46,247 nucleotides of DNA, taken from assembly GCA_016208495.1 (NCBI GenBank), contig JACQXX010000026.1, positions 1 through 46,247 on the forward strand, given 5' to 3'. The notes beneath the pieces are model-generated. The model had not been told where the DNA came from. It made no database searches and saw nothing but the letters and a program-made list of their open reading frames with translations. Positions within the stretch are counted from its first letter, which is position 1. Each line of letters opens with the position of its first letter. Positions 4,020 to 37,833 of the stretch are shown here, one piece after another. Position numbers and translations under genes: made by a program. The stretch comes from Acidobacteriota bacterium. GTDB lineage: Bacteria > Acidobacteriota > Blastocatellia > Chloracidobacteriales > Chloracidobacteriaceae.

Positions 4020-4183
4020 GGCTGATTTCTCCAAATCAACAGATTGCTGAATGTACCAAGTTGAATCCTAGAATGATACCAGGTGCCGGGTGGTTTGAAC
4101 TCAATGAGTTTGGTCCTCAAATTAAAGAGAAATTTGACCATTCGTCATTGATTGCCCAGAAATTAGACCGCATAAGTCTTTTG

Positions 4184-4831
4184 TCAAGAATTATTTCCTG
4201 GGACTCGATATCCCAAAAGATTACTTTTAAGATATTCGGAGGTATTAACTTCATTGCTTTGATTCCCGCCAAGTACTTTGATTTTGTCACTCGTTTCACC
4301 CCAGTAGAATCCCACATGTCCACCGGCGCCTCTTCTAAAAACGACGATACAGCCTTTACGGGGCTGGTCTATTGGAACCCCCCAATTAAGCCAGGATCTT
4401 GCCCAGGCTGAATCAGTTCCTTCATAACCAGCACGTTCAACACACCAATTTACAAAAGCTGAACACCAGTAGGTTTCATCATTGTCTCTGGCTGAACCTG
4501 GGAGAGTGGTAGAATGTAAATACCCTACAATTCTGGGGTTGTCTCCGCTTCCAGGAAATTCCTTAACTCCAACTTCGCCAAGTGCAATGCTCACCCATGG
4601 GAATTCTAAAGCTGAGTCCGTTGTCTCGGTAACAGCCTGGAGGTACCTGTGAGAAACCCATCCTTTTTGACCTGTGGGAGATATAACTTTATACCAGTAG
4701 TCGTCACCAGACATACTGATAAACTCAACAATATCCCCTTTTCTAAGGAAACCAATAATATTTCCGTGAATAGATGGCTCATCTCGGAAGTTAAGTACTT
4801 CAGCAACAACTTTATATTGATTAGTAGACAT
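4184..4831 (-). CDS. SH3b plus CHAP-like (TIGR02594-type) cysteine hydrolase
   Basis: A 215-residue protein. Residues 5-65 form a bacterial SH3 domain (LNFRDEPSIHGNIIGFL, KGWVSHRYL). The rest resembles the TIGR02594/CHAP-type NlpC/P60-like fold: a likely catalytic Cys in YWCSAFVNWC and His in GGHVGFYWG. Such proteins cut peptidoglycan peptides or amides. There is no signal peptide, so it is either released by another route, phage-derived, or part of a contact-dependent or immunity-type system; no holin or phage gene is near. Start ATG at 4829-4831 is supported by AAGGAG seven bases upstream. A foldback mobile element begins right behind that ribosome site, so the promoter must lie inside or beyond the element. 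No clear terminator is seen in the 165 bp before the GH13 gene. Confidence 0.8.
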   Translation of the reverse strand: MSTNQYKVVAEVLNFRDEPSIHGNIIGFLRKGDIVEFISMSGDDYWYKVISPTGQKGWVSHRYLQAVTETTDSALEFPWVSIALGEVGVKEFPGSGDNPRIVGYLHSTTLPGSARDNDETYWCSAFVNWCVERAGYEGTDSAWARSWLNWGVPIDQPRKGCIVVFRRGAGGHVGFYWGETSDKIKVLGGNQSNEVNTSEYLKSNLLGYRVPGNNS

Positions 4832-4837
4832 TGTTTT

Positions 4838-4846
4838 CTCCTTAAG
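4838..4846 (-). promoter_or_regulatory. ribosome binding site abutting the mobile element
   Basis: On the - strand CTTAAGGAG precedes the ATG at 4831. Its TTAAG part (4842-4846) is one copy of the 5-bp target duplication of the element at 4847-5225, so the element inserted exactly at the 5' edge of the Shine-Dalgarno site. Confidence 0.7.
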
Positions 4847-5225
4847 TACAAGTCCCCATAAATGGGGGATGGAATTTCGGTGATTCCGAATTGGCTTTCG
4901 CCCGGATGGGCGCCGGACAATAGCCGGTGGTTTGCCGCTTTGGGCACACCACCGGATCTTCGGTCCGCAGTGGTTTGCGCTGGTTTGCGCCTGGATGGGC
5001 GCTGGAAGCTGGTTCGGGTCACGTTCCCTGCGGGGTTTTCGGCGACTCGCTCACCATTGTATTCCAGCGCCCATCCGGGCGCGAACCCGTGATGGTGACT
5101 CTTTCCGGTGGCCGCGTGTCCAAAGCGACACTTGCCACCGGCTATTTTCCACCGCCCATCCGGGCGAACCCCAATTTTCTCCTAGCGAGTGGTCAAATTT
5201 CATCCCTCTTTTATGGGGACTTGTA
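4847..5225. mobile_element. foldback non-autonomous element, copy 1 (379 bp)
   Basis: Inverted ends TACAAGTCCCCATAAA are followed by imperfectly paired arms, each carrying CGCCCGGATGGGCG and a (C/A)AATAGCCGGTGG block. A second, nested inverted pair (GCGCTGGAAGCTGG against its complement near 5060-5080) fills the middle. It is flanked by a perfect 5-bp direct repeat TTAAG (4842-4846 and 5226-5230). No transposase is encoded. A near-identical copy lies at 33350-33719, with related, differently ended copies at 11397-11707 and 29548-29665. Confidence 0.9.
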
Positions 5226-5304
5226 TTAAGTGTTCTTAAAAGTAGTTCCATGTAAGAAAGCGAATTATTGACATCTTATGGGTCAACAGGAATGAAAATA
5301 AAGT

Positions 5305-5347
5305 AAAAAAGCGACAATCTGCCTGAGGTAACAGATTGTCGCTTTTT
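5305..5347 (-). terminator. intrinsic terminator after the carboxylase gene
   Basis: A perfect GCGACAATCTG stem with a 10-base loop is flanked by A- and T-runs, so on the - strand it ends in TTTTTT. It lies about 180 bp past the carboxylase stop. The T-run on the + strand also allows it to work in both directions. Confidence 0.85.
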
Positions 5348-5410
5348 GGTAAGTCGAGCAGGAAGCAATACTATTTGGGGCTGAAGACTCGCAAGTTCGG
5401 GGCAATCAAA

Positions 5411-5523
5411 GGGATGAGGGATGAGGGATGAGGGATGAGGGATGAAATAAAACCAGTTTTTCAACCCACTTTCTTCAGCCCTCATCCCGACTTCTTCAGC
5501 CCAAGTTCTTCAGCCCGAGTTCT

Positions 5524-5530
<7 letters not shown>
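5411..5530. repeat. heptamer tandem repeats 3' of the carboxylase gene
   Basis: Five perfect copies of GGGATGA occupy 5411-5445. TTCTTCAGCCC recurs at 5471, 5492, 5506 and 5520, that is at steps of 21, 14 and 14 bp, all multiples of seven. The last unit overlaps the carboxylase stop codon at 5524-5526. Confidence 0.85.
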
Positions 5531-10890
<5,360 letters not shown>

Positions 10891-10930
10891 ATTTCCTCCA
10901 TCTAAGAGAGAAGCAAGTAGCGAGCTCAAG

Positions 10931-11097
10931 AGTGAGTAGTGGGTAGCGAGTAGCGAGTAGTCAATCCAGAAAAGTGAATAGCAAGTGGAGCTCAAATCAG
11001 TATTGGATCACTTCCCAGGTGAGAAGTAGGAGAACCAGTAACCGAAACAACAAATCTTCTTTTCTGACTACTCGCTACTCGCTACTCACTACTCGCT
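10931..11097. repeat. inverted pair of GTAGCGA heptamer arrays
   Basis: Left arm 10931-10962 reads GTAGTGG, GTAGCGA, GTAGCGA, GTAGTCA. The right arm 11065-11097 is its reverse complement (ACTCGCT units). About 100 bp lie between them. The stop codon of the small gene at 11107 is itself inside a TAGCGA unit. The pair could fold into a long hairpin in the transcript between the two genes. Confidence 0.9.
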
Positions 11098-11106
11098 TTT
11101 TGTTCG

Positions 11107-11358
11107 CTAGCTTGCGGCTTCGCTGGCTTTGGTTTCTTCTTCAGTGTTGACGTGGGCCAGCAGGTGCACAATTTTTTTCAAACCGGTGATGTCAGTCAAA
11201 AACATTTGTTTTTCCGGGGTTGAGTCCGGCAGGCAGGCCAGAAAATCGTGACAAATCTGAAGTGTGGCCAGCAGGTTCCCGGTTTTGTAATGGTGGATCA
11301 AAAAGGTCAAAGCATCGATTTGAGATTGGGTTAATGATGGTGCGACGTGGTTATTCAT
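11107..11358 (-). CDS. small hypothetical protein between megasynthase and carboxylase
   Basis: An 83-residue, Leu- and His-rich, probably all-helical protein (SQIDALTFLIHHYKTGNLL, LKKIVHLLAHVNTEEE). I recognise no family. The ATG at 11356-11358 is chosen because GAGAGGAT precedes it; the longer frame upstream runs through a foldback element and is unlikely to be translated. It sits 217 bp before the carboxylase gene and 358 bp after the megasynthase gene, on the same strand, so it may be co-transcribed with either. Its acidic C-terminal tail and small size would fit an adaptor, but that is only a guess. Confidence 0.6.
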   Translation of the reverse strand: MNNHVAPSLTQSQIDALTFLIHHYKTGNLLATLQICHDFLACLPDSTPEKQMFLTDITGLKKIVHLLAHVNTEEETKASEAAS

Positions 11359-11396
11359 GGCTGGATCCTCTCTAGGGTGAATGAAGAATGAAAAAT

Positions 11397-11707
11397 CTCC
11401 GTTATGGAAAGATCGCTTGAGCTTGACAGCCTTCCGCCCGGAGGGCGATGGAAAGTAGCTGGTGGTTTGCCGCTTTGGGCACACCACCGGATCTTCAGTC
11501 CGGTTTGGTTCGCGCCCGGATGGGCGCTGGAAGATGGGTTTGGTTCAGTATCTGAAAGTTTTCCGATCAGTTTGCGATTTTAGTCCAGCGCCCATCCGGG
11601 CGCGAATTTGTTCCGGTCCGGGTTCCGGTGGGTGCGCCTCAAAGCAGGCTTCCCACCGGCTACTGTCCGGCGCCCTCCGGGCGAAAACCGACCTCTCCAT
11701 AACGGAG
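11397..11707. mobile_element. foldback element with a related core and different ends
   Basis: Ends are CTCCGTTATGGA (11397-11408) and its complement TCCATAACGGAG (11696-11707). The interior shares the GCCGCTTTGGGCACACCACC block, the CGCCCGGATGGGCGC palindromes and the nested arms with the elements at 4847 and 33350. I see no clean target duplication. It fills most of the 358 bp between the megasynthase stop and the small gene. Confidence 0.8.
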
Positions 11708-11716
11708 AATAAGACA

Positions 11717-14700
11717 TCAACTCAACACCGTTCGGATGAGCGCGACCTGCGCTTCATCGTTGGCGGTAAATTCGACGGTCCGGTACCCTTGCAGGTACAG
11801 AAAGACATTGCCTTCGCCGTCACAGACGACACCGTCAAAGCCGTTGTTTTCGGTGTCGCGACGGATGATGGCGACCTGACGACCGCTGACGTTTTCTCCG
11901 GTGCGGAGTTTGAGCACCCGGTCAACGTGCAGTGGCAATCCCATATGGCCGGTTTCGCCAATTTCCCAGATTCCGGCGGTTTGGAAGCACAACTCGATCA
12001 GACGCGGCGTCAGTTGGGTTTCAAGTTCCATCGGACGATGGTTTTCGATCAATTCGGCGGCAAACTGACCGGCGACGCAATCCTCCCATTTCCAGATTTT
12101 TTCAAGGACCTGATAGGCCGGGCCGTGGAAATAAATCCGGTAAATGTCTTCGGCGTTGACGGTGGCTTCAGCTTCAGTCGCTGGTTGTTCCAGGTCTTCC
12201 GGGAGTGGTTGCCGGGTCAGGCGAACTGTACCGGTAAAGTGAACGGTTTCCTGCGGTGTCGGTTGGTTTGGCAACGTTCGCGTTCCAATCAGGCGGCAGA
12301 AGGCCAGAATGTCTTCGCCGTCGGTTTGGAATTTGGCCACGAGTTTGATGGTCCGTGGTTCGTGCCGGTAAAACTTAAACGGCGCCAGAAAGTCCACGTT
12401 TTCAACGCTGGCGACTGACCGGTCAGGGAAGAGCACGGCGGCCAGTTCGGCAAATGATTCCATGCCCATCACGCCCGGCAGTACTGGCGTGCCTTCAATC
12501 TGGTGATCAAAGAGGAATGGTTGTTCCTTTGGATCCAGTGTGGTCTCAATCGTGAGCCCGGTGTGGAGTCCAAATCCGGTCACGTTGCCAATCATTGGGC
12601 CGACGTTTCCGGCTTCGCGGTGCTCGGCCAGTTGTTGATTGATGGCTTCGACATCGAGACCGCCGGTTGCATCAAATTCGTCCATCAAGAGGCCGAGTCG
12701 CTCGGCGACCACGATTTCATCCCGGCGGCTGCCGGAGATCAATTCGCGGCGAATGAATGGGATGCCGGCTTCGGGGGCCAGCATGTCAATGCCGGCAAGT
12801 TCCATCATTTTTGGAATCGAGCCGCGCGAGGCCATTCCGATGCTGCTCCAGGCCGTCCAGTCGGTGGCAATGCCCCGCGTGTTGGGCCGCGTCGTGCGGA
12901 AGCTCGATGTGGTTTTGCAGAGCAGATCATTGGCAGAGCTGTAATCAGTTTGACCGCCGTTGCCAAAGCGTCCGGCAATCGAACTAAACACCACGGTGGC
13001 GCCAAGCGGCATCTGGCCAATGCTGCGCAGCAGGTTAAACCAGCCGTCGCACTTGACGTCAAACACCAGATCAAACTCGCGCGGTTCTTTGTCTTTCAGG
13101 AAGCGGCTGATTTCGAGTCCGGCGGCGTGCAAGAGCACATCAATCCGGCCTTGCTGTTCCTGAACGGCGTCAATCGCGTTGCCGACCGATTCGGCATCCC
13201 GCAGGTCAACGCTAAAGTAATGCGCGGTCCCGCCGGCGGCTTCGATGGCCTGGATGGCGGTGAGTGCGGCGCTGGCGCGTTCCAGGGCGGCGAGTTCTTT
13301 TTCAACCATGGCCGGGGTGGCGCGTTCGCCTCTGGCTTTGAGGCGTTCAAAGATGTCTCGCTTGAGGTTGTCTTTGTCATTGGCCAGCCGTGGAATGTCC
13401 GGGTTATGGCGGTCTGGTTCAGGGACCAAATCAAGCAGATAGAACGTCCCACCTGAGGCGACGGCCAGATCGGTGGTAATTGCTGACACAATGCTCCCGG
13501 CGGCACCGGTGACCACAAACACGGTGTCCTGGTTCAATTCCATTCCGGGTTCGCCGTTTTCGACCGGGATTTCCCGGAGTCCAACTGTCCAGCGATTTCC
13601 CTCCGCATAGCCAATTTCGACGGCGCCAGGATCAGTCAGGGTTTCAGCAATCAGGGTTTCAGCAATCTCATCGGCTGAAGTGTCAGGTTGGAAGTCAACT
13701 GTTTTGACGAGTGCTTCGGTGCGTTCGCGTTTATAGGCTTTGGTAAAGCCGGTGACGGCGCCGCCCAGCGGAGCGCGGGCTCCGGTCGGGCCATAGCCGT
13801 GCTGGCCATCCAGATGAACTGCCGAAACCAGGAAGGTGCCGGCGGCCTGAATCTGGTCATAGAGCACCCGCATTGTGGCGTAGAGGTACTTGACGCGAAC
13901 CTCCAGCTCAGCCCGCCACTGTTCCAGGTGCATATCAAACAGGTTGTCTTCGACGGCCAGGGCTGGTAACCAGTACACACCGTGGATTGGCCCGGCTTCG
14001 AGCCAGGTCTGAATCTGATCGGTGAGGGAAGCCGCATCCGATAGATTGTCAAGTTTCAGGACTTCGACGCCACGGTTTGCCAGTTTCTGACACAGGATTT
14101 CGGTGACGTCGCCCAGTTCGGGCATGACGATCACGCGGGTGCCGGCTTCGAGCCTGACGCCGGTTGGTTTGCAATCAGTCAGTGCCGGTCGCAGGATCGG
14201 AACCGGGACGCGTCGTGGAATGGCCGCCGCCGCATCGAGCGACATCGTTTTTGGCGTTGCGGGCGTTGTGACCGCTACGGTTGCCGCCGCACTCGTTGAC
14301 GGGGCAGTTGATTGAGCCGTGACGTTGCCTTTCAAATCCGGGCGTTTGTCATACACAAACCCAATCACGTGGCTGAGGGTTGGGAAGTCCCGGAGTTTCA
14401 GATTTTCATCACGTGGAATGTCAAACATTCCGCGAACCGAGGCAAACATTTCGGCTTGCTTGACGGTGTCAACCCCCAGGTCGGCTTCCAAATCGAGATC
14501 AAGGTCCAGCATTTCCGGCGGATAGCCGGTTTTCTCGACGGCCAGATCCAAAACTTTCTGGGTGACTTCGTCAACTGCCGGTGCTGCTTCGGCGACCGGG
14601 GCGGCAACCGGTTGAACCGGTGCTGGTGCCGCGGTGACTTTCAGGTCAGGTCGTTTGTCATAGACAAACCCAATCACATGTTTCAAGGTCGGGAAGTCGC

Positions 14701-17700
14701 GCAGCTTGAGGTTTTCATCGCGAGCAATGTTAAAAATGGCCCGAACTGAAGCAAACATTTCGGCTTGCTTGACGGTGTCTACGCCCAGGTCGGCTTCCAG
14801 ATCGAGGTCAAGATCGAGCATTTCCGGCGGATAGCCGGTCTTTTCAGCGGCCAGGGCCATCACTTTTTGGGTGACTTCGTCGTGAACCGGTTCTGGCGCG
14901 GCAACTGGCGCTTGAGCGTGAACCGGGGCTACAACCACCGGGGTTGGTGCCGCTGGTTCTGAAGCTTTCAAATCCGGACGCCGATCATAGACAAACTGAA
15001 TGACGTGTTTGAGCGTCGGGAAGTCGCGTAATTTGAGGTTTTCATCGCGTGGAATGGTGTAGGCCGCACGAATCGCCGCAAACATTTCAGCCTGTTTGAC
15101 GGTGTCAACACCCAGGTCGGCTTCCAGATCAAGGTCCATATCGAGCATGTCAATCGGGTAGCCGGTTTTTTGAGCCGTCAGTTTCAGCACTTCTTCGCGA
15201 ACTGGATCAATCGTTGCCACCGCGACGACGGGTGCCAGAGCCGGTGCCGCGCCAACACCAGAAGGCATGGAAACGACTCTCGCCGGAAGTGGTGGCAGTT
15301 CAACCGCTTTGAGATCGGGACGCCGATCATAGACAAACTGAATGACGTGTTTGAGGGTCGGGAAGTCGCGCAGCTTGAGGGTTTCCTCGCGTGGAATGTC
15401 ATACGCCCCGCGAATCGCCGCAAACATTTCGGCCTGTTTGACGGTGTCAACACCGAGGTCGGCTTCCAGGTCAAGATCTAAGTCCAGCATATCCACGGGA
15501 TAGCCGGTCTTTTGGGCGGCCAGGTTAAGCACTTTTTCTTTAACCAGGTCAAAGACCGGAAGCGGCGTTGCAACCGGGGTAAATTGCGGTGCCGCCAGAA
15601 CCGGTTCGACCTTCGGAGGTTCAATTTTGGCCGCTGGTTGAATCACTGCCGGTGCGGGTGACGGTTGTGACATGGCCGGTTGCGCCCAGGAAGTCGCCGG
15701 TGCATTGACAATCGGTTTCGCGGCACCGGTATGCAGCGGCACGGCTGGCGTTCCCTGGTCTTTAATGCGCAGGGTGCGGTTGACCACTTCCATTTCGGCG
15801 GTTTGATAGCCTGACACGAAACTCAGCCATTGATTGAACTGATTCCGATCAAAGATCCGATATTCATACCCGAGCGCATCGGGCGCACGGTGCATGCCAT
15901 CGGCGGTTGGAATCCAGCGAATCAGCGTCATGCTGATTTGTGAGCCAAACCCGGCGCCCAGCCGGAGGGCATATTGAACCGGGTAGGCGCCGCCTTTCGA
16001 CAGATTGAGCACGCCCAAATCCGGGTCAACTTCTTTAAAATTGGCGACCGGCGGCACAATACCGGTTTCAATCGCTTTGATCCCGATGACGTCTTCAATT
16101 CCGACGCCCATCGGATGGCCGGTAAAGCCTTTGGTATTGGCGATCACAAGCTGGCTGGCATGGTCGCCAAAGACCTGCCGGAGGGCATGGACTTCGGCCG
16201 CCGCGCTGCCACCGCGAGCCGGGGTGTAGGTCTCGTGCGAGACAAACACGGTCTGCGGTGCGATCTGGTGGCGGTTAATTCCGGTGCGGGCTTCGGCCTG
16301 GGAGACCAGCTTTTCCATCACCATGCAGATATGGTTGACGTCGAGTCGGGTGCCGTGGAAGGCGCTGTTGGCCGTGGCCGTGCTGAGGACTTCGCAAATC
16401 GGCTGGATGCCGCGTTCGCGGGAGGCTTCGGCACTTTCAATCACAAAGGACGCCGCGCCCATCCCGAGAATCATCCCGTGACGACGACGGTCAAACGGGG
16501 TGGCGGCTTCTTCGACCACATCATCGGTGGCCGCCGCGCCCGTGGCGAGAAATCCGGCGCCAAACCATTCCATCAGATTGTCGGAGGTCACATCATCAGC
16601 GGCCACCACAACCACCCGTCGGCAGCGACCGGAATGAATCCAGTCTTCGGCCAGGGCAACGGCTTGCGTGGTGCTGGCGCAGGCGGAGTTAATCGCGGTG
16701 TTTGGCCCACGGGCGCCGATCAATTCGGCAAATTGTGAATGACCCATGGCCAGAACCCGGAACAGGAATCGGCGATCAAACTGGAACGGCGCGGCTTCAA
16801 TGGCACGGTTGAGTTCGCCAATCCGGCGATCAATTTCAAGGGCAATGGTGGTTGCCTGGCCATCCAGGCGCGAGCGCAGACTGGTCAACATTTCCAGTTC
16901 CTGGTGCCGGGCGTGATCTTCCCAGTAGTGGGTCAAACTCGACGCAAATGAGTCATAGCCTGGAAACGCCGAGGCAAAAATCACGCCGGTTTCATCACGC
17001 AGGGCTTCGGGCAGCCCCCACCGGTCGGGGAGTTGCGTGCCTTTGGTGGTGGTTTTGTACCGCAACACCAGTGGAATTCCGGCATCGCGCAGGGCGTCAA
17101 TCCCGGCGCCAATGGCGAGTTGTGTCACTTCATCCAGGGCCGCCAGCCGGTCCGCTGGGATGCCGAAATCGTGTTCCAGATCAATGATTCCAGCTCTGGC
17201 CGCCAGCTTCACCACTTCCGAAGCGCTTTCAATCGCTTCAAAGCGGGCGCCGGCATCACTCTTGACCAGCCGGGTGATGTGTTTTTCGACCATCAACCGC
17301 CGGTATTTGGCTGGAATGACATCAATAAATTGTTCGCCGCGTAAAATACGGCCCAGATTGGCTTCGTCAAACACGCGTTCAACGCCGGGCAATCCAAGCG
17401 CGGCACCGGAAATAACGACCAGTTCCTGGGCGGCGCGAGCGGGTGTGGCCTGGCCTTGATACAGGTGCATGCCGCGTTCAAGGAATTCGGCAAAGAGTTT
17501 GCCAAGCTCCACATAGGTTTGATTTGCATTTGGTGTGCTCATACCTGCTCCACGAGTGACAGCCGCGGTTGGTATTCCAGACGGCGTCGGGTGAACCGGC
17601 GCGGCGGCAGTCAAATTCACTGATGGTTGGGCGGGTGCGGAAATCGCCGCTGTCGCCTGGGTGACAACTGGCTGGGCAACGGGTTGGGGAACTCGCCCGG

Positions 17701-20488
17701 CACCCAGACCGGCGGCATACAGCCCGCACAAAGCCTGGTTAAACGAAGCAACATCACCGGTTTTCGGATGATTGGTGGCCAGCGAAATCACATCTGGATG
17801 GTGACCCAGTACATCATCCACAAACCCTTGCAGGGCTTTTTTCGGGCCGACTTCAACAAAAATTCGGGCGCCGGCTTCATAGAGCGTGTGCAGTCCTTTG
17901 ACGAATTGCACGGGGGAGGCCACCTGTTTGGCCAGAATGTCGAGCATCTCTGATTTGACATTGGGACCGGTTGGGTAGAATTCGCCGTTGATATTGGCCA
18001 CGGTCGGAATTTTCGGAGATCGCATGGTGAGCCGTTCCAGCGTCTGGCGGAGCGGACCGCTTGCCGGGGCGACAATCGTGGTATGAAACGCGTGACTGAC
18101 CGGGAGCGGCACACAGTTGTATCCAGCTTCTTTAAAAAGGTGCTCGGCCTGGGCCACCGCCTCGCTGATGCCGCCGATCACGGCCTGAACGTTGCTGTTG
18201 ATATTGGCAATCACCACATACCCATCAACAGTTTTTAAGATCCGTTCAATTTCTGGAAGCGGCGCAAAAACCGCGGCCATTTTGCCGTTGTCGCCCATTG
18301 AAACTTTGGTCATTTCGCGGCCACGGGCACTGACGGCTTCGAGGGCATCGGCAAACGGCATCGCTTCAGCGGCCACCAGCGCCCCGTATTCACCCAGGCT
18401 GTGGCCCATCACCATATCGGATTTGATGCCATAGCTGGCCATCAATTTGGTAAGTGCCGAATCAACCGCCAGGACCGCTGGCTGGGTAATGGCTGTCTGG
18501 CGCAGATCCTTTTCGGCCTGGGCGACGGCGGCTTCATCAGCCTGTTGCACAAAAATGTAATCGGATAACGATTTTCCACCGAGCAACGGGGTCATGACCT
18601 TATCGGCTTCAGCAAAGACCTCAGCCACCACTGGTTCGATGTCGCGCAGGTGCTGGAGCATGTTGACGTATTGCGAACCCTGCCCGGTGTAGAGAAACGC
18701 GACTTTTGGCGCCGGGCCGCTGCCGTGAAACACACCCTGCGACCGCAACGCTTTCCACATGGCCGGGTTGTTGGTTTCGAGGGCTTTGAGCGCCTTTCCG
18801 GCTTTGTCGGCCAGGTCTTTGGCATCGGCATAGTCAATCGCGATGCGTTCCGGGGCTCGGAGGTCAGCTTCGGCTGGAGCTTCGATTTCTGGCGCATTTC
18901 CGGCCTGGGCTGCGGTTTGCACGGCTTTCAGGCGTTCGATCAACGCGGTGCTTGACGTGCCGCCAAGGACCAGAGCCCCCCGGAACGGCGCTCTCAGTTC
19001 AGCCGTTGAGCCTTTCGCGGGCACAGTTTCAATGCCGGAAACCTGGACTTTTTTCGGTTTCAGGCGGCCTGGAATATATTCTTCAAAGACAGCATGAAAG
19101 TTGGTGCCACCAAACCCAAAGGCGCTGACGGCGGCCCGTCGAACACCACACGCCGGCGTTGGCCAGGGTTTGAGTTCGGTGTTGACATAAAATGGCGAAT
19201 GGGCGAAATCAAGATTTGGATTCGGTCTATGGAAGTTGAGGCTTGGCGGCAGCACTTTTTCGTGCAAGGCCATGATGACCTTCAACATCCCGCTGGCCCC
19301 GGCGGCGCCTTTGAGGTGGCCGATGTTGGATTTGACCGAACCCAGCGCGATGGACTGCGTGGCAGGTCCAAACGGGGTAAAGACGTCAATCAGGCTTTGG
19401 ACTTCGACCACGTCACCGACTTTGGTTGACGTCCCGTGGCCTTCGATCAAGGTGGCCGTGGCTGGCGAGAGCCCGGCATTTTTCCAGCCGCGTTCGATGG
19501 CAATTCGCTGGCCGATTGGATTTGGAGCCGTAATGCCTTTTCCACGTCCATCGCTGGAGCCACCCATGCCGCGCATGACCGCATAAATCGTATCGCCATC
19601 GCGTTCGGCGTCTTCGAGGCGCTTGAGCACAAAAATGGCGGCCCCTTCACCCATCACAAATCCGTCCGAACCGTCTGCATAAGGCCGGGTGCCGGTCGCC
19701 GACAGGGCGCCGATCTTGCAGAATTTCACAAACGTGGCGATTCCCATGTTGCGATCAATTCCGCCGGTAATCACGGTGTCGAAATCACGTTCAACCAGAC
19801 CTTCAATCGCGGCACTCATGGCCGCCATGGCTGAAGCACAGGCCGCATCACAGACATAGTTTGGGCCGTGGAGGTTAAACAGATTGGCGACACGACCCGC
19901 GATGCAGTTGGAAAGCTCGCCCGGCATGGTGTCTTCCGTGATGTTGGGGAAGAACTCCTGGGTGTTGGCATGAAATTGCTGGAGGATCGTGGCGCGAACA
20001 TCCGCTGGAAGCGCCGCAAACGCCGGGGCGTTGCTCAACTCGCGGGCAAATTCAGGATGGGCCAGCCGGGTTGACGTCAAATAGTGACGCTCACCGGCCA
20101 TGGCATTCCCGAAAATAACGGCAGTGCGTTCCAGGTCGAGTGGTCGGTTGGGGTATCCAAAACTGGTCAGTGCTTCGTGGGTACATTTTACCGCCCATTT
20201 TTGGGTGTCATCCATTGACTGGCTGACACGCGGCGGAATCGGCAAATGCCAGGCAATCGGATCCCAGGCACATTCACGAACCCAACCACCGATTTTGGAA
20301 TAGGTTTTATCTGGTACTTTCGGATCGGCGTCATAATACACCGCCGGATCCCAACGGTCGGGGGTGACTTCCGAAATCGAATAGCGACCACCCTTTACAT
20401 TGGCCCAGAAGGTCGAGGCGTCGGGTGCATCGGGGAGTGCGGCACCGATTCCGACGACGGCAATTGCACGGTAAGCTGTATCTTCCAT
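11717..20488 (-). CDS. type I PKS / PUFA-synthase-like megasynthase: KS-AT-KS-ACPx4-KR-DH
   Basis: A 2923-residue multidomain synthase resembling the PfaA-type synthases of polyunsaturated and other secondary lipids. KS1 (about 1-460) has C217 in DAACASAM plus EGHGTST and NIGHLKGA. The acyltransferase (about 590-900) has S697 in GHSLGE. A divergent second KS (about 1030-1560) has C1270 in NSACASTT, SHETYT and FTGHPMG, so it may be active. Four carrier domains follow at about 1640-2050, separated by Ala/Pro linkers; each has LGVDTVKQAEMF, with Thr at 1682, 1796, 1905 and 2008 in place of Ser. A ketoreductase has TGAAGSIV and Y2516 in TDYSSAND, and a hotdog dehydratase ends the protein with H2662 in DHQIEGTPVLPG. 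No enoyl reductase, thioesterase or phosphopantetheinyl transferase is seen. Start at 20488 has GGAAG upstream. Product unknown. Confidence 0.9.
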   Translation of the reverse strand: MEDTAYRAIAVVGIGAALPDAPDASTFWANVKGGRYSISEVTPDRWDPAVYYDADPKVPDKTYSKIGGWVRECAWDPIAWHLPIPPRVSQSMDDTQKWAVKCTHEALTSFGYPNRPLDLERTAVIFGNAMAGERHYLTSTRLAHPEFARELSNAPAFAALPADVRATILQQFHANTQEFFPNITEDTMPGELSNCIAGRVANLFNLHGPNYVCDAACASAMAAMSAAIEGLVERDFDTVITGGIDRNMGIATFVKFCKIGALSATGTRPYADGSDGFVMGEGAAIFVLKRLEDAERDGDTIYAVMRGMGGSSDGRGKGITAPNPIGQRIAIERGWKNAGLSPATATLIEGHGTSTKVGDVVEVQSLIDVFTPFGPATQSIALGSVKSNIGHLKGAAGASGMLKVIMALHEKVLPPSLNFHRPNPNLDFAHSPFYVNTELKPWPTPACGVRRAAVSAFGFGGTNFHAVFEEYIPGRLKPKKVQVSGIETVPAKGSTAELRAPFRGALVLGGTSSTALIERLKAVQTAAQAGNAPEIEAPAEADLRAPERIAIDYADAKDLADKAGKALKALETNNPAMWKALRSQGVFHGSGPAPKVAFLYTGQGSQYVNMLQHLRDIEPVVAEVFAEADKVMTPLLGGKSLSDYIFVQQADEAAVAQAEKDLRQTAITQPAVLAVDSALTKLMASYGIKSDMVMGHSLGEYGALVAAEAMPFADALEAVSARGREMTKVSMGDNGKMAAVFAPLPEIERILKTVDGYVVIANINSNVQAVIGGISEAVAQAEHLFKEAGYNCVPLPVSHAFHTTIVAPASGPLRQTLERLTMRSPKIPTVANINGEFYPTGPNVKSEMLDILAKQVASPVQFVKGLHTLYEAGARIFVEVGPKKALQGFVDDVLGHHPDVISLATNHPKTGDVASFNQALCGLYAAGLGAGRVPQPVAQPVVTQATAAISAPAQPSVNLTAAAPVHPTPSGIPTAAVTRGAGMSTPNANQTYVELGKLFAEFLERGMHLYQGQATPARAAQELVVISGAALGLPGVERVFDEANLGRILRGEQFIDVIPAKYRRLMVEKHITRLVKSDAGARFEAIESASEVVKLAARAGIIDLEHDFGIPADRLAALDEVTQLAIGAGIDALRDAGIPLVLRYKTTTKGTQLPDRWGLPEALRDETGVIFASAFPGYDSFASSLTHYWEDHARHQELEMLTSLRSRLDGQATTIALEIDRRIGELNRAIEAAPFQFDRRFLFRVLAMGHSQFAELIGARGPNTAINSACASTTQAVALAEDWIHSGRCRRVVVVAADDVTSDNLMEWFGAGFLATGAAATDDVVEEAATPFDRRRHGMILGMGAASFVIESAEASRERGIQPICEVLSTATANSAFHGTRLDVNHICMVMEKLVSQAEARTGINRHQIAPQTVFVSHETYTPARGGSAAAEVHALRQVFGDHASQLVIANTKGFTGHPMGVGIEDVIGIKAIETGIVPPVANFKEVDPDLGVLNLSKGGAYPVQYALRLGAGFGSQISMTLIRWIPTADGMHRAPDALGYEYRIFDRNQFNQWLSFVSGYQTAEMEVVNRTLRIKDQGTPAVPLHTGAAKPIVNAPATSWAQPAMSQPSPAPAVIQPAAKIEPPKVEPVLAAPQFTPVATPLPVFDLVKEKVLNLAAQKTGYPVDMLDLDLDLEADLGVDTVKQAEMFAAIRGAYDIPREETLKLRDFPTLKHVIQFVYDRRPDLKAVELPPLPARVVSMPSGVGAAPALAPVVAVATIDPVREEVLKLTAQKTGYPIDMLDMDLDLEADLGVDTVKQAEMFAAIRAAYTIPRDENLKLRDFPTLKHVIQFVYDRRPDLKASEPAAPTPVVVAPVHAQAPVAAPEPVHDEVTQKVMALAAEKTGYPPEMLDLDLDLEADLGVDTVKQAEMFASVRAIFNIARDENLKLRDFPTLKHVIGFVYDKRPDLKVTAAPAPVQPVAAPVAEAAPAVDEVTQKVLDLAVEKTGYPPEMLDLDLDLEADLGVDTVKQAEMFASVRGMFDIPRDENLKLRDFPTLSHVIGFVYDKRPDLKGNVTAQSTAPSTSAAATVAVTTPATPKTMSLDAAAAIPRRVPVPILRPALTDCKPTGVRLEAGTRVIVMPELGDVTEILCQKLANRGVEVLKLDNLSDAASLTDQIQTWLEAGPIHGVYWLPALAVEDNLFDMHLEQWRAELEVRVKYLYATMRVLYDQIQAAGTFLVSAVHLDGQHGYGPTGARAPLGGAVTGFTKAYKRERTEALVKTVDFQPDTSADEIAETLIAETLTDPGAVEIGYAEGNRWTVGLREIPVENGEPGMELNQDTVFVVTGAAGSIVSAITTDLAVASGGTFYLLDLVPEPDRHNPDIPRLANDKDNLKRDIFERLKARGERATPAMVEKELAALERASAALTAIQAIEAAGGTAHYFSVDLRDAESVGNAIDAVQEQQGRIDVLLHAAGLEISRFLKDKEPREFDLVFDVKCDGWFNLLRSIGQMPLGATVVFSSIAGRFGNGGQTDYSSANDLLCKTTSSFRTTRPNTRGIATDWTAWSSIGMASRGSIPKMMELAGIDMLAPEAGIPFIRRELISGSRRDEIVVAERLGLLMDEFDATGGLDVEAINQQLAEHREAGNVGPMIGNVTGFGLHTGLTIETTLDPKEQPFLFDHQIEGTPVLPGVMGMESFAELAAVLFPDRSVASVENVDFLAPFKFYRHEPRTIKLVAKFQTDGEDILAFCRLIGTRTLPNQPTPQETVHFTGTVRLTRQPLPEDLEQPATEAEATVNAEDIYRIYFHGPAYQVLEKIWKWEDCVAGQFAAELIENHRPMELETQLTPRLIELCFQTAGIWEIGETGHMGLPLHVDRVLKLRTGENVSGRQVAIIRRDTENNGFDGVVCDGEGNVFLYLQGYRTVEFTANDEAQVALIRTVLS

Positions 20489-20689: not shown

Positions 20690-22357
20690 TCACTGTTTCC
20701 GGTCATAGATCGCATCGGCGACCAGGTCCATATCGGCAACCATTCCAGCCTGAGCGCGGTAAATGGCGGCGCATCGCAGGCTGGCTTCAAAGGCCGGCAT
20801 TTCGGCATCACTGACGCCGCCGGCGCCGGCAATCCAGCGCATGCCATCTTGAGCCAGTTTGAGTGCGACTTCGCGGGCATTCACCCGGCTCATGGCCGCC
20901 TGGGCCGCAGCGTGAAAGCGATGTTCGGCTTTCGGGTTGAGCAGTTTATTGGCGGTGGCCACGGCGCGTCTGGCCAGGGCTTCGGCGCCTTCAGCCAGTG
21001 CAATCAGCTCACCCAGGCGGAACAAAATGTGTTGATACCGGGTGAGTCGAGCCGTGCGGGCGCGTTCCAGGATTTCAGCCAGCGCGTGCAGCGCCAGGGC
21101 GACGACATTGGCCCCGACCTGCGGATTGGTTTGATGGAGGGCCTCCATCGCCTTGGCTTTGTCGTGATAATGCTGGCCACGGGTTTTTAAGTGAGCCTGC
21201 CACCGGTCACGGCTGATGGTCATTTCCATGATTTCGGAAGTGCCTTCATAAATGGTTGTAATGCGCACGTCCCGTTTATATTTTTCGACCATGTATTCTT
21301 TGGTATAGCCATAGCCGCCCAGGGCCTGGATGGCGGCATCCGCGGCGGCGTTCCCGGCTTCGGTCGCCAGATATTTGGCAATGGCACCCTCGGTGTTGAG
21401 GTTGGCTTCACCGCTGGCCAGCCGTTCGGCGGTGGCTTCGATATAGGCGCGTCCGGCTTCGAGTCGGACGACGTGTGGAACAATCAGTTTGTGGGTATAG
21501 CCCTGTTTTTCAGAGAGTGGCGCACCGGCTTGAATTCGCGTCGTGGAGTAGGGAATCGCGCGATCCATTGCTGCCCAGCCGCCGCCAAGTCCAAACGCAG
21601 CCACCATTAGGCGTGTGTAGCCAAACACGTCCTGAGCCTGCAACAAGCCCTGGCCTTCCACGCCGCCAACCATATTTTCAAATGGAACAAAGACTTCGTC
21701 GAGTGCGAGTGCCGCCGTGTTGCTGGCCCGGATCCCGTGTTTGTCTTCCGGTTTGCCGTGGCTAAACCCTTCCTGATCTTTGGGAAGGACAAACCACGTT
21801 GGGCCGCCCGGAGCATTGGCCAAAATGGTGTAGACATCGGCCACGCCGCCGTTGCTGATCCATTGTTTATTGCCGTTGAGCCGATAGCCGATGACTTTGC
21901 CATCTTCTTCGACCGGTCGGGCGGTGGTGCGCAGTGACCCAAGGTCGCTTCCGGCTTCGGGTTCGGTGGCGCCATAGGCATAGAGCACACCGTCTTCGGC
22001 AATTTTTGAAAGCCAGGTCATTTTTTGGTCTTCGGTGCCTCCGGCCAGAATTGGGTCGCTTCCCAAAAACGTCGCCAGCACACCGGTGGCAATTCCCAGG
22101 TCAAACCGGGCCATGGCTTCACAAATTCGATAAATATCAATGGCATCGCCGCCCATTCCACCATAGGCTTCGGGGACAAATACCAGTTGAATGCCAAGGT
22201 CGGAACCGATGCCCCGAACCACGTCGGTCGGGAATTCATCGCGTTCGTCAAACCCGATCAGATCATGGTCTGAAACCTGAGCTGCAATGTAGTCTTTAAA
22301 TGCCTTGAGCGTCATCTCAAGGGTTTCCTGGTCAAGTCCTGTGGTTGCGATTTGCAT
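20690..22357 (-). CDS. acyl-CoA dehydrogenase with long C-terminal extension
   Basis: A 555-residue flavoprotein. Residues 1-400 form the standard acyl-CoA dehydrogenase fold ([37 protein letters not shown]) with catalytic base E371 in [12 protein letters not shown]. About 150 further helical residues follow, as in very-long-chain enzymes; plain family members are near 380 residues. It should oxidise an acyl-CoA to the 2-enoyl-CoA using FAD. Lying between the PFOR pair and the lipid megasynthase, it may instead act on an acyl product of that pathway, or run as an enoyl reductase; nothing in the sequence proves this. Start ATG 22355-22357 has AAGGTG upstream and is preferred to a GTG 24 bases earlier. 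Confidence 0.92.
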
Positions 22358-22404
22358 AGTTTCACCTTTCGGAAAAAGCACTTCATCTTCGGTAATACCA
22401 ATGA

Positions 22405-22576: not shown

Positions 22577-23590
22577 TCAAATAAGCACCCCGGTTGGATC
22601 AGAGCGCCAGGATTGCAGCGCTTTCATATAGTTGGCGCGTTCAAATGCAGTCGGTTCCGCCACGTTTTTCTGGCTCATGCTGCCCTGCATCTGGACAATG
22701 GATTCATATTCGCGTTCTTCCATCCAGCGCGTGAGATCGGTCACAATTTCATTGATCCGTTTAAACCCGTGCTGGAGCAGTTCAGAGGTAATCATGGTGA
22801 CCTTGGCCCCGGCCATCATGCCCTTGAGCACATCTTCATGGGTGTGGACGCCGCTGGTAATCGCCAGATCAACCGGCACGCGACCATAAAGAATTGCCAC
22901 CCAGCGCAGAGGCAGACGGAGTTCGTTGGAATTGCTGAGGACCAGGTGCGGGACCACTTCCAGGTTTTCCAGATCAAAGTCCGGCTGGTAAAACCGGTTG
23001 AAGAGGACCAGTGCATCGGCGCCCTGGGTGGCCAGTCGGTGGGCCATATTGGCCGTGGCGCTAAAGTATGGGTTGAGTTTGACCGCGAGCGGCAGCGAAA
23101 TGCTTTGTTTGACCTCGCAGACAATGTCCAGATACATTTGTTCGACCACCGTGCCGGTAATGTGCGGGTCGGTTGGAATGTAATATATATTGAGTTCCAA
23201 CCCTTGCGCGCCGGCCTGTTCAATCTTTTTGGCGTAATCAACCCAGCCACCCGTCGAAATCCCATTCAAACTGCCGATGATTGGAATGTCGGTTGCCTCG
23301 CGGGCCCGGGCAATCAGATTGACATATTCATCTGGACCGAGATTGTACGCCGACGGTTCTGGAAAATAACTCATGGCTTCGGCATAACTTTCTGAACCAT
23401 AGGCTAAGTAATGATCCAGACGATGGCTTTCGTGGGTAATTTGTTCCTCAAACAAAGAATACATGACAATGGCTGAGGCGCCGGCGTCTTCCATTCGGCG
23501 AATAGTATCCAGCGTTCTGGACAGGGGTGATGCCGATGGCACCACCGGATGTTTTAATTTGAGTCCCAGATAGGTCGTTGACAGATCCAT
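22577..23590 (-). CDS. dihydroorotate dehydrogenase-like FMN protein
   Basis: A 337-residue TIM-barrel protein of the class often annotated dihydroorotate dehydrogenase-like. It opens [20 protein letters not shown] and keeps [26 protein letters not shown] and the late-barrel [11 protein letters not shown] of FMN-binding barrels. The usual catalytic Cys/Ser loop of true PyrD is not obvious, so orotate synthesis is doubtful. The start is 14 bp after the stop of the pyruvate:ferredoxin oxidoreductase gene, which implies one transcript. Such genes commonly sit beside nifJ-type oxidoreductases, and a role in electron transfer or metabolite repair for that enzyme is an inference from context. Its stop lies directly beside GGGTTCA-type repeats. 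Confidence 0.88.
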
Positions 23591-23604
23591 ATAACGCGTC
23601 CTCC

Positions 23605-26600
23605 TCAGCTCGGTTGTTCGGTTTTGGCCATTTTTTCGTACTTTTTCCAGCGTTCCATAATTTCACGTTGGGCGACTTCCATCAGGTGGGCCGCCGTCGT
23701 CGGATCGCTCTGAACGAGCATGCTGTAGCGGGTCTCGTTATAGGCATAGTCCTTGAGCGGCAGTTTCGGCGTTCGTGAATCGAGCAGGAACGGATTCTTG
23801 TTTTCGGCTTTCAGTCGCGGGTTATAGCGGAACAGCGGCCAGTACCCGGTTTCGGCAGCCAGTTTTTGCTGGTGCATTCCCTTGGCAATATCAATCCCGT
23901 GCGCAATGCAGTGGCTATAGGCAATGATGAGCGACGGCCCGTCATAACTTTCAGCTTCCTGGAAGGCTTTCAGGGTGTGGATGTCGCTGGCGCCCATCGC
24001 AATCTGGGCCACATACACATTGCCGTAACTGATCGCCATCAAGCCCAGGTCTTTTTTGCCAGTCGGTTTTCCACCAGCGGCAAATTTGGCAACCGCACCC
24101 ATCGGCGTGGCTTTCGATGCCTGACCGCCGGTGTTGGAATAGACTTCGGTATCAAGGACCAGCAGGTTGATATTTCGACCACCAGCCAGCACGTGGTCAA
24201 GTCCGCCATAGCCGATGTCATAGGCCCAGCCGTCACCGCCGACAATCCAGACGCTCTTTTTGACCAGCATTTCCGACACACAGACCAAATCGCGAATTTG
24301 AAGGTGGTACTCAGGAAATTCGCCATCGCTGGTTTGCAGCTTTTGTTTCAAGATGGCGACTCGTTCGCGTTGGGCGCCGATTTCACCTTCGGTGTCCTGG
24401 GTGCTATTGAGCAGACCATCGGCCAGGTTGTCGCCGATGACCGTGCGCAATCGGGTGACCAGTTCGCGGGCATATTCGGTTTGTTTATCAATGGTGAGCC
24501 GCATGCCGAGTCCAAATTCCGCGTTGTCTTCAAACAAGGAATTGCTCCAGCTTGGTCCACGTCCATCTTTGTTGGTCGCCCAGGGGGTCGTTGGCAGGTT
24601 CCCGCCATAAATACTCGAACACCCCGTGGCGTTGGCAATCAACGCCCGGTCGCCAAAGAGCTGCGACAGGAGTTTCAAATACGGTGTTTCGCCACAGCCG
24701 GCGCAGGCACCAGAAAATTCAAAGAGGGGTTGGATGAGTTGGACGTTTTTCACGGAATCAACCTTGAGTGACTCGTGGACTGGAATGTCAGGTAACTTGA
24801 GGAAAAATTCCCAGTTGTCCCGTTCGACTTCTCTGAGTGGCAAATACGGTGCCATATTGATGGCGCGGCGTCCGGTTTGGGTCTTGTCCTTGACCGGGCA
24901 GACCTCGACGCACAGCCGGCAGCCTGTGCAGTCATCGGCTGAAACCTGAAGCGAATATTTTTTTCCAGGCAGTTCTTTAAACCGGGCATCGGTGTATTTA
25001 AAGGCCGCCGGCGCCGTTTCAAGTTCCGCCGGGTCATACACTTTGGCGCGAATCACCGCGTGTGGGCACACCATCACGCACTTGCCGCATTGAATACAGA
25101 GATCGGTTTCCCAGACTGGGACGTCCTGGGCAATGCACCGTTTTTCCCATTGGGTGGTGCCGACAGGGAATGTGCCGTCAATTGGGAAGGCGCTCACTGG
25201 CAACAGGTCGCCGCGACCAGCAATGATTTCGGCTTCGACGTTGCGCACAAAATCCGGGGCGTTGGCGGGCACGACCGGTGGTCGTTCAAAGGTACTGGTC
25301 AGTTGTTCGGGGACTGCCACCTGGTGCAGATTTTCAAGTGTCTGGTCAACGGCGGCGAAATTTTTGATCACCACGGCTTCACCGCGTTTGCCGTAGGTTT
25401 TGCGGATCGTGCCTTTGATTTTTTCAATTGCTTCTTCACGGGGCAGCACACCGCTGATGGCAAAGAAGCAGGTCTGCATCACGGTGTTGATGCGGTTGCC
25501 CATGCCCGCCTGTTTGGCCACCGAATAGCCGTCAACCACATAGAACTTGAGCTTGAGGCGAATGATTTGTTCCTGGAGCGAGCGCGGCAGCTTGTCCCAG
25601 ACTTCATCGGGTCCATATGGACTGTTGAGCAGGAAGGTCGCGCCTTCACTGGCATTTTCGAGCACGTCAAATTGTTCGACAAAGCCAAACTGATGGACGG
25701 CGATAAAATTGGCACGTCGGATCAGGTACGTGCTGTTGATCGGGCGGGGGCCAAAGCGGAGGTGCGAAACGGTTCGCGCGCCGGATTTCTTCGAGTCATA
25801 GACGAAATACCCTTGAGCGTAAAACGGAGTCTCTTCGCCAATAATCTTGATTGAGTTTTTGTTGGCGCCAACCGTGCCGTCAGCTCCGAGTCCCCAGAAG
25901 AGTGCCCGGACGACATCATCGGCTTCGATATCAAAGTTCGGATCAAAATCGAGGCTCGTGTGCGTCACGTCATCATTGATACCGATGGTGAAGTGGTTTT
26001 TCGGCTTGTCTTTGGCAAGTTCGTCAAACACGGCCTTGACCATGGCCGGGGTGAATTCTTTGGATGACAGGCCATAGCGACCGCCGATGACTTTCGGGAA
26101 TTTGGTAAACGGCGACAGGACCTGACCGTTGATGTAATCTTCGCTGATGGCGGTGAGGATATCCTGATAGAGCGGTTCGCCCGAGGCGCCAGGTTCTTTG
26201 GTGCGATCCAGTACCGCGATGGATTTGACGGTGGCCGGCAGCCCTTTCAGGAAATGTTCAACTGAAAATGGCCGATAGAGCCTGACTTTCAAGAGGCCGA
26301 CTTTCTCGCCTTGTGCCAGCAGGTAATTGACGGTTTCTTCGGCGGTTTCACAGCCTGAACCCATCATCACAATGACGCGTTCGGCTTCCGGGTCACCGAC
26401 ATAATCAAACAGGTGATACTGCCGCCCGATCAACCGGGCAAACTTGTCCATCGTGTCCTGAACGATTCCGGGTGTCTCGGTATAAAAAGGATTGATCGTT
26501 TCGCGGGCCTGGAAAAAGACGTCCGGGTTTTGGGCCGTGCCTCGAATGACCGGACGGTCAGGTGACATCGCACGCATGCGGTGGGCATAAACGCTTTCAC

Positions 26601-27189
26601 GGTCAATCATTGCGGAGATATCTTCTTCCGGAATGCGCTCGATTTTCATCACTTCGTGTGACGTTCGAAAACCGTCAAATACATGAAGGAAGGGAACACG
26701 GGCTTTGAGTGTGGAACTTTGCGCAATCAGCGCAAAATCCATCACTTCCTGCGGCGAACAGGCAAACAACTGCGCCCAGCCGGTTGACCGGACCGACATC
26801 ACATCGCTGTGGTCGCCAAAAATTGAAAGTGCGTGGGTGGCGATTGAGCGGGCGGCGATATGAAACACGGTGCTGGTTAATTCGCCCGCAATCTTAAACA
26901 TGTTGGGAATCATCAACAGCAGTCCCTGGCTTGAAGTGAAGGTCGTGGTCAGGGCACCGGTTTGGAGCGCACCGTGGACGGCACCTGCCGCGCCGCCTTC
27001 AGATTGCATTTCCTGCACGAGTGGAATGCTGCCGAAAATATTGGTCTGGCCGGCAACCGACCAGGCATCAGACAATTCCCCCATCGCCGAAGACGGGGTA
27101 ATCGGATAAATGGCAATCACTTCATTGGTTTTGTGCGCGATATAAGCGGCGGCTTCATTTCCTTCCAGGGTAACTTTTTCGCGATTCAT
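23605..27189 (-). CDS. nifJ: pyruvate:ferredoxin (flavodoxin) oxidoreductase
   Basis: A 1194-residue single-chain PFOR, the usual length. It oxidises pyruvate with CoA to acetyl-CoA and CO2 and reduces ferredoxin or flavodoxin. The domain order is standard: N-terminal pyrimidine-binding domain ([16 protein letters not shown]), CoA/core domains, and two 4Fe-4S clusters (C698 in [16 protein letters not shown]754 in [13 protein letters not shown]). Then come the cluster-proximal CAGCGETPY and the thiamine diphosphate domain ([28 protein letters not shown]). The start at 27189 is supported by AGGTAGGA and by the conserved N-terminus. It leads a - strand block with the dihydroorotate-dehydrogenase-like gene 14 bp behind. 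It implies low-potential electron metabolism, and in this context could feed acetyl-CoA to the carboxylase and megasynthase downstream. Confidence 0.97.
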
Positions 27190-32611: not shown

Positions 32612-32908
32612 AAACCTGGAAATCCGTGAAATCAAAACAGTTGTTGGAGAAAGCTCGAAAGCGTGAAATCAAAGAAGAATGATCCGCGCTGGTTGGAAGA
32701 GAATGATCAAAGGACATTCTCAATCATTAAGGAGCAATCTGCAACAAAACTCTTTCAGAAAACGGAAAGGTGACCGATGCTCAGCTTTGCTGAAGTTGTT
32801 GTGCTCTCGCCATTGGCAAACTGGTTGCCGTGAAACCAGGCAATGGGTATCGTTCACGAAGAGAACTCCTGGCTCATATCGAGAACCTGTATTTGTGGAG
32901 AAGCCGAA

Positions 32909-37732: not shown

Positions 37733-37833
37733 AACTGAGTACCCTGTTGTTTTCAGAGGATAGCTGATGGGAAATTCCCGTGAGTTAGCTGTCACCGTTC
37801 ATACCATAGTATATCAAGGACTAATTTTTGGAC

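What the first reader, a model, noticed from the sequence alone, without database searches (positions are those of the whole stretch)
14465..15445. All four carrier domains have Thr at the phosphopantetheine Ser position
Seen: LGVDTVKQAEMF occurs in all four tandem ACPs, codon ACC each time (15443, 15101, 14774, 14465). In the PfaA family the motif is DS(I/L)K and the Ser receives the 4'-phosphopantetheine. Four identical substitutions are not random decay, since the rest of each domain is well kept. Either a specialised transferase modifies Thr, or these domains bind something other than a phosphopantetheine arm. I believe DTVKQAE-type carriers exist in other PKS-like proteins, so the pattern may define a subfamily.
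Basis: partly seen in the sequence, partly recalled or inferred. Interest (0 to 1): 0.72.

Follow-up and report, generated by a model that had tools for sequence, protein, structure and literature searches.

The report
Polyketide synthase with threonine carrier domains
A widespread but unstudied family of bacterial lipid-making enzymes appears to hold its growing product on a threonine where known carrier domains use a serine, and it usually travels with its own enzyme for loading that site, which points to a lasting, working change in a textbook protein modification.

Summary
All four tandem ACPs of the 2923-aa synthase at 20488-11717 (KS-AT-KS-ACPx4-KR-DH) carry LGVDTVKQAEMF with ACC=Thr. 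It is not local decay. In 80 relatives picked by ketosynthase alone, 188 of 189 readable ACPs have Thr, none Ser, and all four Thr codons occur. Six neighbouring PfaA-type loci have Ser (14 of 14), as do the 16 other carrier domains found in this genome. The KS tree gives one Ser/Thr split plus one return to Ser at a single ACP. The Thr synthases are partnered by one subfamily of Sfp-type phosphopantetheinyl transferase, usually encoded beside the PKS or fused to its C-terminus; in this genome it lies on another contig. Best reading: Thr is the phosphopantetheine acceptor, loaded by that PPTase. No chemistry was tested. The layout matches the uncharacterised 'Type R secondary lipid synthase' of Shulse & Allen 2011, whose main text never says 'threonine'. 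'Binds something else' is unlikely.

The parts
11717..20488 (-). Iterative type I PKS/lipid synthase, 2923 aa, KS1-AT-KS2-ACPx4-KR-DH
   Evidence: ORF, Pfam, translation, domain HMMs
19049..20470 (-). KS1 (active Cys in DAACAS)
17804..18697 (-). AT (GHSLGE)
15809..17206 (-). KS2, Cys present (NSACAS), so not an obvious Cys-less chain length factor
15305..15574 (-). ACP1, acceptor Thr codon ACC at 15443-15445
14963..15232 (-). ACP2, acceptor Thr codon ACC at 15101-15103
14636..14905 (-). ACP3, acceptor Thr codon ACC at 14774-14776
14327..14596 (-). ACP4, acceptor Thr codon ACC at 14465-14467
12719..13501 (-). KR
11744..12571 (-). DH
20690..22381 (-). Acyl-CoA dehydrogenase-like gene; an ACAD of this family lies beside the PKS in 77 of 80 relatives
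5524..10995 (-). Single-chain acetyl-CoA carboxylase-like protein; lies between PKS and PPTase in many relatives

Best explanation
The protein is an iterative type I lipid/polyketide synthase whose tandem ACPs carry the 4'-phosphopantetheine arm on threonine instead of serine. The arm is attached by a partner Sfp-type phosphopantetheinyl transferase. In this genome that enzyme is encoded at contig C128:14792-15556; in relatives it mostly lies next to the PKS or is fused to its C-terminus. The rest of the cycle is ordinary: acetyl-CoA carboxylase supplies malonyl-CoA, AT loads it, KS1/KS2 condense, KR and DH process. I infer that the neighbouring acyl-CoA dehydrogenase, with EtfAB and an Fe-S membrane protein in many Acidobacteriota, handles enoyl reduction or desaturation, since no enoyl reductase domain was found in the synthase. 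Shown here: the conserved Thr, intact catalytic residues, PPTase partnership and one Thr/Ser swap. Inferred: that Thr is modified, that this PPTase does it, and the kind of product.
For: KS-selected census without reference to the ACP: 188 Thr, 0 Ser, 1 unclear 'Q' (L108, motif missing) and 7 cut domains in 80 loci. An earlier HMM count gave 192 Thr and 4 gaps in 65 loci. Codons ACC 102, ACG 72, ACT 8, ACA 6. The same ACP HMM does find Ser domains where they exist: 14 of 14 in six PfaA-type loci. KS1 Cys, AT Ser and KS2 Cys in 9 of 9. In the window's phylum, PPTase of this subfamily (E below 1e-15) in 9 of 10 motif-positive genomes and 1 of 139 others (Fisher 1.3e-12), or, choosing by KS1 over 800 bits, in 9 of 11 and 1 of 138 (Fisher 7e-12). 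The one other, G074, holds a sister PKS that also has Thr ACPs. Present in 18 of 20 named genomes, 16 of the 20 titled outside Acidobacteriota. All 15 PPTase loci fetched from those lie beside the PKS (12) or its ACC up to the contig end (3). PPTase is fused in 15 loci, above Pfam's ACPS cut-off in both tested. KS and PPTase distances correlate, r=0.79 over 35 pairs, 0 of 2000 permutations as high. ACP1 is Ser in three genomes and Thr in their sisters, same architecture and, where the 3' end is held, a fused PPTase of the same group. The PPTase model matches Sfp-type enzymes, including Sfp bound to CoA and a carrier protein.
Against: No modification was measured. In E. coli ACP the S36T change gives a protein that, in the authors' words, cannot be modified by 4'-PP (PMC3340395, passages read); a spinach Ser38 to Thr/Cys change is said to lose function (cited in PMC9310384, passage read). 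A co-encoded PPTase is also common beside other, presumably Ser-type, synthases (PMC3098273, passages read), so its presence suggests that the carriers are meant to be loaded, not that the enzyme is adapted to Thr. No PPTase signature tracks Thr: KES in 30 of 55 loci, KEA 24, REA 1. In this genome and in G037 the PPTase is not next to the PKS. Genomes with the synthase but no such PPTase found: G090 (81% complete) and G113 (93%; its PKS is cut before the ACPs), and the named G157 and G164.
Confidence: 0.85

Rival explanations
1. The Thr ACPs are unmodified spacers or docking domains, and substrate is carried by another holo-ACP (for example the genome's type II ACP).
For: Lab-made Thr mutants of serine ACPs are inactive (PMC3340395, passages). 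Own genome has a normal type II ACP with Ser (L132).
Against: The Thr is fixed in 188 of 189 readable KS-selected domains, which a spacer would not need. A PPTase is co-encoded or fused in most relatives. In three genomes one ACP of the same synthase type has Ser.
Confidence: 0.07
2. The carriers are modified by the ordinary housekeeping transferases (AcpS or the NRPS-type Sfp) and Thr is a neutral variant with no dedicated partner.
For: Own genome has AcpS (L001) and another Sfp-type PPTase (L002). PPTases with the standard KEA motif serve some Thr synthases. Four genomes with the synthase showed no partner PPTase.
Against: A separate PPTase subfamily follows the Thr synthases across phyla, mostly adjacent or fused. 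A neutral variant should drift back to Ser more than once over this depth; the tree needs one return, at one ACP.
Confidence: 0.1
3. The domains carry a different prosthetic group or bind a ligand other than phosphopantetheine.
For: Acceptor residue changed in all four domains.
Against: The fold model is ACP-like with Thr at the start of helix 2. The checked active-site residues of KS1, AT and KS2, which work with a thioester arm, are kept. Thr and Ser exchange at one orthologous ACP beside a fused PPTase. The PPTases keep the usual GxDxE and WxxKExxxK motifs, with few variants.
Confidence: 0.02
4. Sequencing, assembly or lineage-local decay artefact.
For: Tandem repeats can be misassembled; one relative (L108) shows a domain with the motif missing.
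Against: Same residue in close to two hundred KS-selected domains from several phyla, with different codons, and in more by motif.
Confidence: 0.01

Closest known systems
Type R secondary lipid synthase (Shulse & Allen 2011, PMC3098273, passages read)
   Same: One protein KS-MAT-(KS/CLF)-ACP(3-6)-KR with a downstream PPTase; found in Acidobacteria, Chloroflexi and Elusimicrobia; an ACC gene between PKS and PPTase in Koribacter.
   Different: The paper's main text has no word 'threonine' and no 'acyl-CoA dehydrogenase'; the passages read describe no acceptor change and no PPTase fusion in this type. The window's second KS keeps its Cys and a DH follows the KR. Identity with the paper's own accessions was not tested.
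PfaA of omega-3 PUFA synthases (TIGR02813)
   Same: KS-AT-tandem ACP-KR order; best-scoring NCBIfam model.
   Different: 981.6 bits, below the model's curated 1010.1; ACP acceptor Thr, not Ser; one-protein layout with a second KS and DH. Six PfaA-type loci form the Ser outgroup.
Sfp-type (group II) phosphopantetheinyl transferases
   Same: Pfam PF01648 above cut-off; model of the L050 enzyme matches human AASDHPPT and the Sfp-CoA-carrier complex; motifs GxDxE, WxxKExxxK.
   Different: Separate subfamily tied to Thr-ACP synthases; strict monophyly not shown.
Enediyne PKS with C-terminal PPTase domain (recalled, no call)
   Same: PPTase fused at the C-terminus of an iterative PKS, as in 15 relatives here.
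   Different: Enediyne PKS has, as I recall, one ACP with Ser; not compared here.

Membership tests
Phosphopantetheine carrier domain (PF00550) | Profile match above Pfam cut-off | tested here: met
   27.7, 25.3 and 23.3 bits against 20.8 for three of the four domains; the fourth not listed
Phosphopantetheine carrier domain (PF00550) | Acceptor serine at the start of helix 2 | tested here: not met
   Thr in 4 of 4; model helix 2 starts at that Thr
Phosphopantetheine carrier domain (PF00550) | Carries 4'-phosphopantetheine | not testable with these tools
   needs mass spectrometry
PfaA (TIGR02813) | Curated NCBIfam score | tested here: not met
   981.6 of 1010.1 bits
PfaA (TIGR02813) | ACP motif with Ser (LGIDSIK) | tested here: not met
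   Thr in window; six PfaA-type loci 14 of 14 Ser
Type R secondary lipid synthase | Single protein KS-MAT-KS/CLF-ACP(3-6)-KR | tested here: met
Type R secondary lipid synthase | Downstream PPTase gene | tested here: inconclusive
   Met in most relatives checked; in this genome the PPTase is on another contig
Type R secondary lipid synthase | KS clusters with the named Type R proteins | tested here: inconclusive
Sfp-type PPTase (the partner in this genome) | ACPS profile and catalytic motifs | tested here: met
   66.2 bits against 25; GCDLE, WSAKESALK

The most novel reading that the evidence does not exclude
This is a natural, ancient class of O-threonyl phosphopantetheine carriers. Its Thr makes the carriers invisible to AcpS and the NRPS-type transferase, and only the partner or fused PPTase can load them. 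It would be an insulated second phosphopantetheinylation channel, running in the same cell as the serine system and spread, by record titles, over at least six bacterial phyla.
Probability: 0.4. Interest if true: 0.85.

Novelty: new variant of a known kind. Interest (0 to 1): 0.74.

Why it matters
Serine is treated as the attachment point of phosphopantetheine, and an E. coli ACP with Thr there was used as a dead control (PMC3340395, passages read). A large conserved family that uses Thr would change how carrier domains are annotated, could give an orthogonal PPTase-carrier pair for labelling and synthetic biology, and gives a handle on an uncharacterised lipid pathway found in many soil acidobacteria. 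The Ser/Thr swap at one ACP and the fused PPTases make the question directly testable.

Tried and rejected
Rejected: decay or artefact (the census refutes it). Rejected: a PPTase active-site signature for Thr; WSAKES looked promising in the first alignment but is absent in 7 of 9 Chloroflexota rows, in G054, G074, L302, L305 and L346, and in 13 of 15 fused forms. Rejected: PPTase inside the window; no ACPS hit on this contig. Solved-structure search with ACP1 found only the PigH ACP pair and one weak ACP. Literature (open-licence PMC papers only): 'DTVKQAE' in no paper; searches for Thr acceptors showed no natural Thr carrier in the listings, nor in the passages I opened; one search found nothing at all; one search listed 12 of 100. 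The JACS Au paper says the ACPs of its PUFA-like synthase all have Ser (PMC13291983, passage read).

15 of the 80 gave no ACP, as a rule because the contig ends. The sets were found by a pattern that leaves the acceptor codon free but fixes the flanking KQA, so Ser synthases with other flanks are missed there, and the match list is cut. (KS only) covers this for one phylum; of 164 genomes with a match I fetched 20 stretches. In some searches some matches with other residues (A, V, L, G, D, R, one lone T) were taken as chance and not checked one by one. The KS tree used 62 of 123 rows (those with a readable ACP, about every third of the 80 loci, L108 not among them), a quick method and the Ser rows as root; L299/L124 and L034/L046 are the same sequence twice. 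In the PPTase tree two long-branch rows of other PPTases fall inside the Thr group. The E cut of 1e-15 was set after seeing the gap (G074 1.4e-16, next genome 2.6e-7). The 164 of 164 required DT, so it does not test Thr.
Full report
What is there. The window lies in an 8.4-Mb genome (window = contig C26). A genome of the same family (G051) has the same KS sequence as a Blastocatellia MAG, so the organism is probably an acidobacterium of that class. The finding lies in an ORF of 2923 aa, 20488-11717 minus. Pfam and my own domain models give KS1-AT-KS2-ACPx4-KR-DH. An acyl-CoA dehydrogenase gene lies upstream and a single-chain acetyl-CoA carboxylase downstream.

The observation. The four DTVKQAE sites are real, on one frame, with ACC each time; none in 100 shuffles. 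The Thr falls on the Ser column of the carrier domain and starts helix 2 in a model of mean pLDDT 83 whose nearest solved folds are ACPs. KS1 Cys, AT Ser and KS2 Cys are present in 9 of 9 homologues. Sixteen other carrier domains found in the same genome all have Ser; only the PKS domains have Thr (by reading the printed stretches).

Is it general? To avoid choosing by the motif, I aligned KS1 from nine homologues and scanned one genome for each of 84,980 species with it: 567 relatives, best 80 kept, 63-82% identical, in Acidobacteriota, Pseudomonadota, Myxococcota, Chloroflexota, Actinomycetota, Bacteroidota and others by record title (some MAG titles may be wrong). Their ACPs read 188 Thr, 0 Ser, 1 'Q' where the motif is missing (L108), 7 cut. 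The Thr codons vary (ACC 102, ACG 72, ACT 8, ACA 6), so the amino acid is kept while the DNA changes. In the window's phylum the exact motif occurs in 10 of 149 genomes, in tandem or at a contig end. A pattern with the acceptor codon left free matched in 70 of 282 genomes of the phylum of L072 (titled Myxococcota) and 24 of 301 of the phylum of L115 (Chloroflexota); the listed tandem sites are Thr, apart from three Ser sites treated below.

Where Thr begins. A KS-only search of the 282 genomes gave matches in 164. I fetched 20 stretches. Among these, synthases above about 500 bits on the KS model with readable ACPs have Thr (29 domains, one more cut); the six that score 441-461 are PfaA-type with Ser, 14 of 14 domains, and show no PPTase of this subfamily in the fetched stretch. 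Rooted on these six, the KS tree puts the other 56 rows on one side of a branch with support 100: 54 Thr, one mixed, one Ser. The last two, with L276 (which has no KS1), are three genomes (L275, L276, L277) with Ser at the single ACP between AT and KS2; where the tandem ACPs are also held (L275, L276) these are Thr. Sister proteins (L279-L281, L355, L358) have Thr at that position. So one ACP went to Ser while the array stayed Thr. The simplest meaning is that Thr and Ser do the same job there.

The transferase. This genome has three PPTase genes: AcpS (L001), one next to an ORF that I read by eye as a thioesterase (L002), and a third (L003 = C128:14792-15556). The third is 34-43% identical to PPTases directly downstream of the PKS in eight relatives. 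Over the 149 phylum genomes, this subfamily (E below 1e-15) is in 9 of 10 motif-positive genomes and 1 of 139 others (Fisher p 1.3e-12). Chosen by KS1 over 800 bits instead, it is in 9 of 11 and 1 of 138 (p 7e-12). The two without it are G090 (81% complete) and G113 (93% complete; its PKS is cut before the ACPs). The one other, G074, has beside its PPTase a sister synthase with DTVKQAQ in three ACPs, so it follows the rule too. Of 20 named genomes, 16 of them titled outside Acidobacteriota, 18 have it; G157 and G164 do not. I fetched 15 of those PPTase loci: 12 lie beside the PKS and 3 beside its ACC up to the contig end; the other three (G156, G158, G166) were already seen linked in L115, L118 and L054. 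In the window's phylum 8 of 10 are linked; G000 (this genome) and G037 are not. In 15 loci of other architectures the PPTase is a C-terminal domain of the PKS itself, above Pfam's cut-off in the two I tested. KS and PPTase distances run together (r = 0.79 over 35 pairs, 0 of 2000 permutations as high).

Mechanism. Shown: fixed Thr, active-looking synthase, Sfp-type PPTase with usual motifs and fold in steady partnership. Inferred: the PPTase moves the arm from CoA to the Thr hydroxyl. For a serine ACP the same change kills function (E. coli, PMC3340395, passages). That makes a fixed natural Thr surprising, and may be why a dedicated transferase is kept. An insulated channel that AcpS cannot touch is attractive but untested. 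No active-site feature separates these PPTases: KES 30, KEA 24, REA 1 of 55 loci.

What is known. Shulse & Allen (PMC3098273, passages read) described 'Type R' clusters, KS-MAT-CLF-ACP(3-6)-KR plus PPTase, in Koribacter, Solibacter, Elusimicrobium and Roseiflexus, product unknown. The present family has that layout, and L287 comes from a 5,801,598-base contig, which is the length I recall for Roseiflexus sp. RS-1. 'Threonine' does not occur in that paper's text. The window protein falls just short of NCBI's PfaA model (981.6 of 1010.1 bits). 'DTVKQAE' is in none of 5.39 million open papers; other searches listed no natural Thr carrier that I could recognise.

Verdict. A real and widespread variant of the carrier domain, in a synthase type probably already named by layout but whose acceptor change I did not find reported. 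The chemistry remains to be shown.

Noticed in passing
window 5524-10995 (-): Single-chain acetyl-CoA carboxylase with biotin carboxylase, biotinyl, eukaryote-like central and carboxyl transferase parts; a similar long form lies between PKS and PPTase in relatives from several phyla.
   Followed up: partly
L048:4281-9922 and many other Acidobacteriota loci: Operon Fe-S/CCG membrane protein, EtfB, EtfA, ACAD upstream of the PKS: a possible external enoyl reductase or desaturase system for a PKS without an ER domain.
   Followed up: partly
window 22577-27189 (-): DHOD-like protein and pyruvate:ferredoxin oxidoreductase directly upstream of the ACAD gene, where many relatives have the Etf genes.
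   Followed up: no
L188 (G074), 2631-12518 (-): Sister synthase with two leading KS domains, three Thr ACPs and a stretch between ACPs and KR that I read by eye as an acyltransferase/peptidase-like insert; PPTase gene nearby.
   Followed up: partly
L063:2656-4335: Wax ester synthase/DGAT gene upstream of the operon; ORFs of its cluster occur in 14 of 81 loci, a hint at a storage or wax-like lipid product.
   Followed up: no
L108, PKS 3394-12918: One ACP of the array lacks the acceptor motif; real loss or an assembly join within repeats.
   Followed up: no
window 30089-32635 and 34391-37795 (-): Phosphoesterase-plus-AAA/NB-ARC protein and a TPR-CHAT protein, signalling or defence-like.
   Followed up: no
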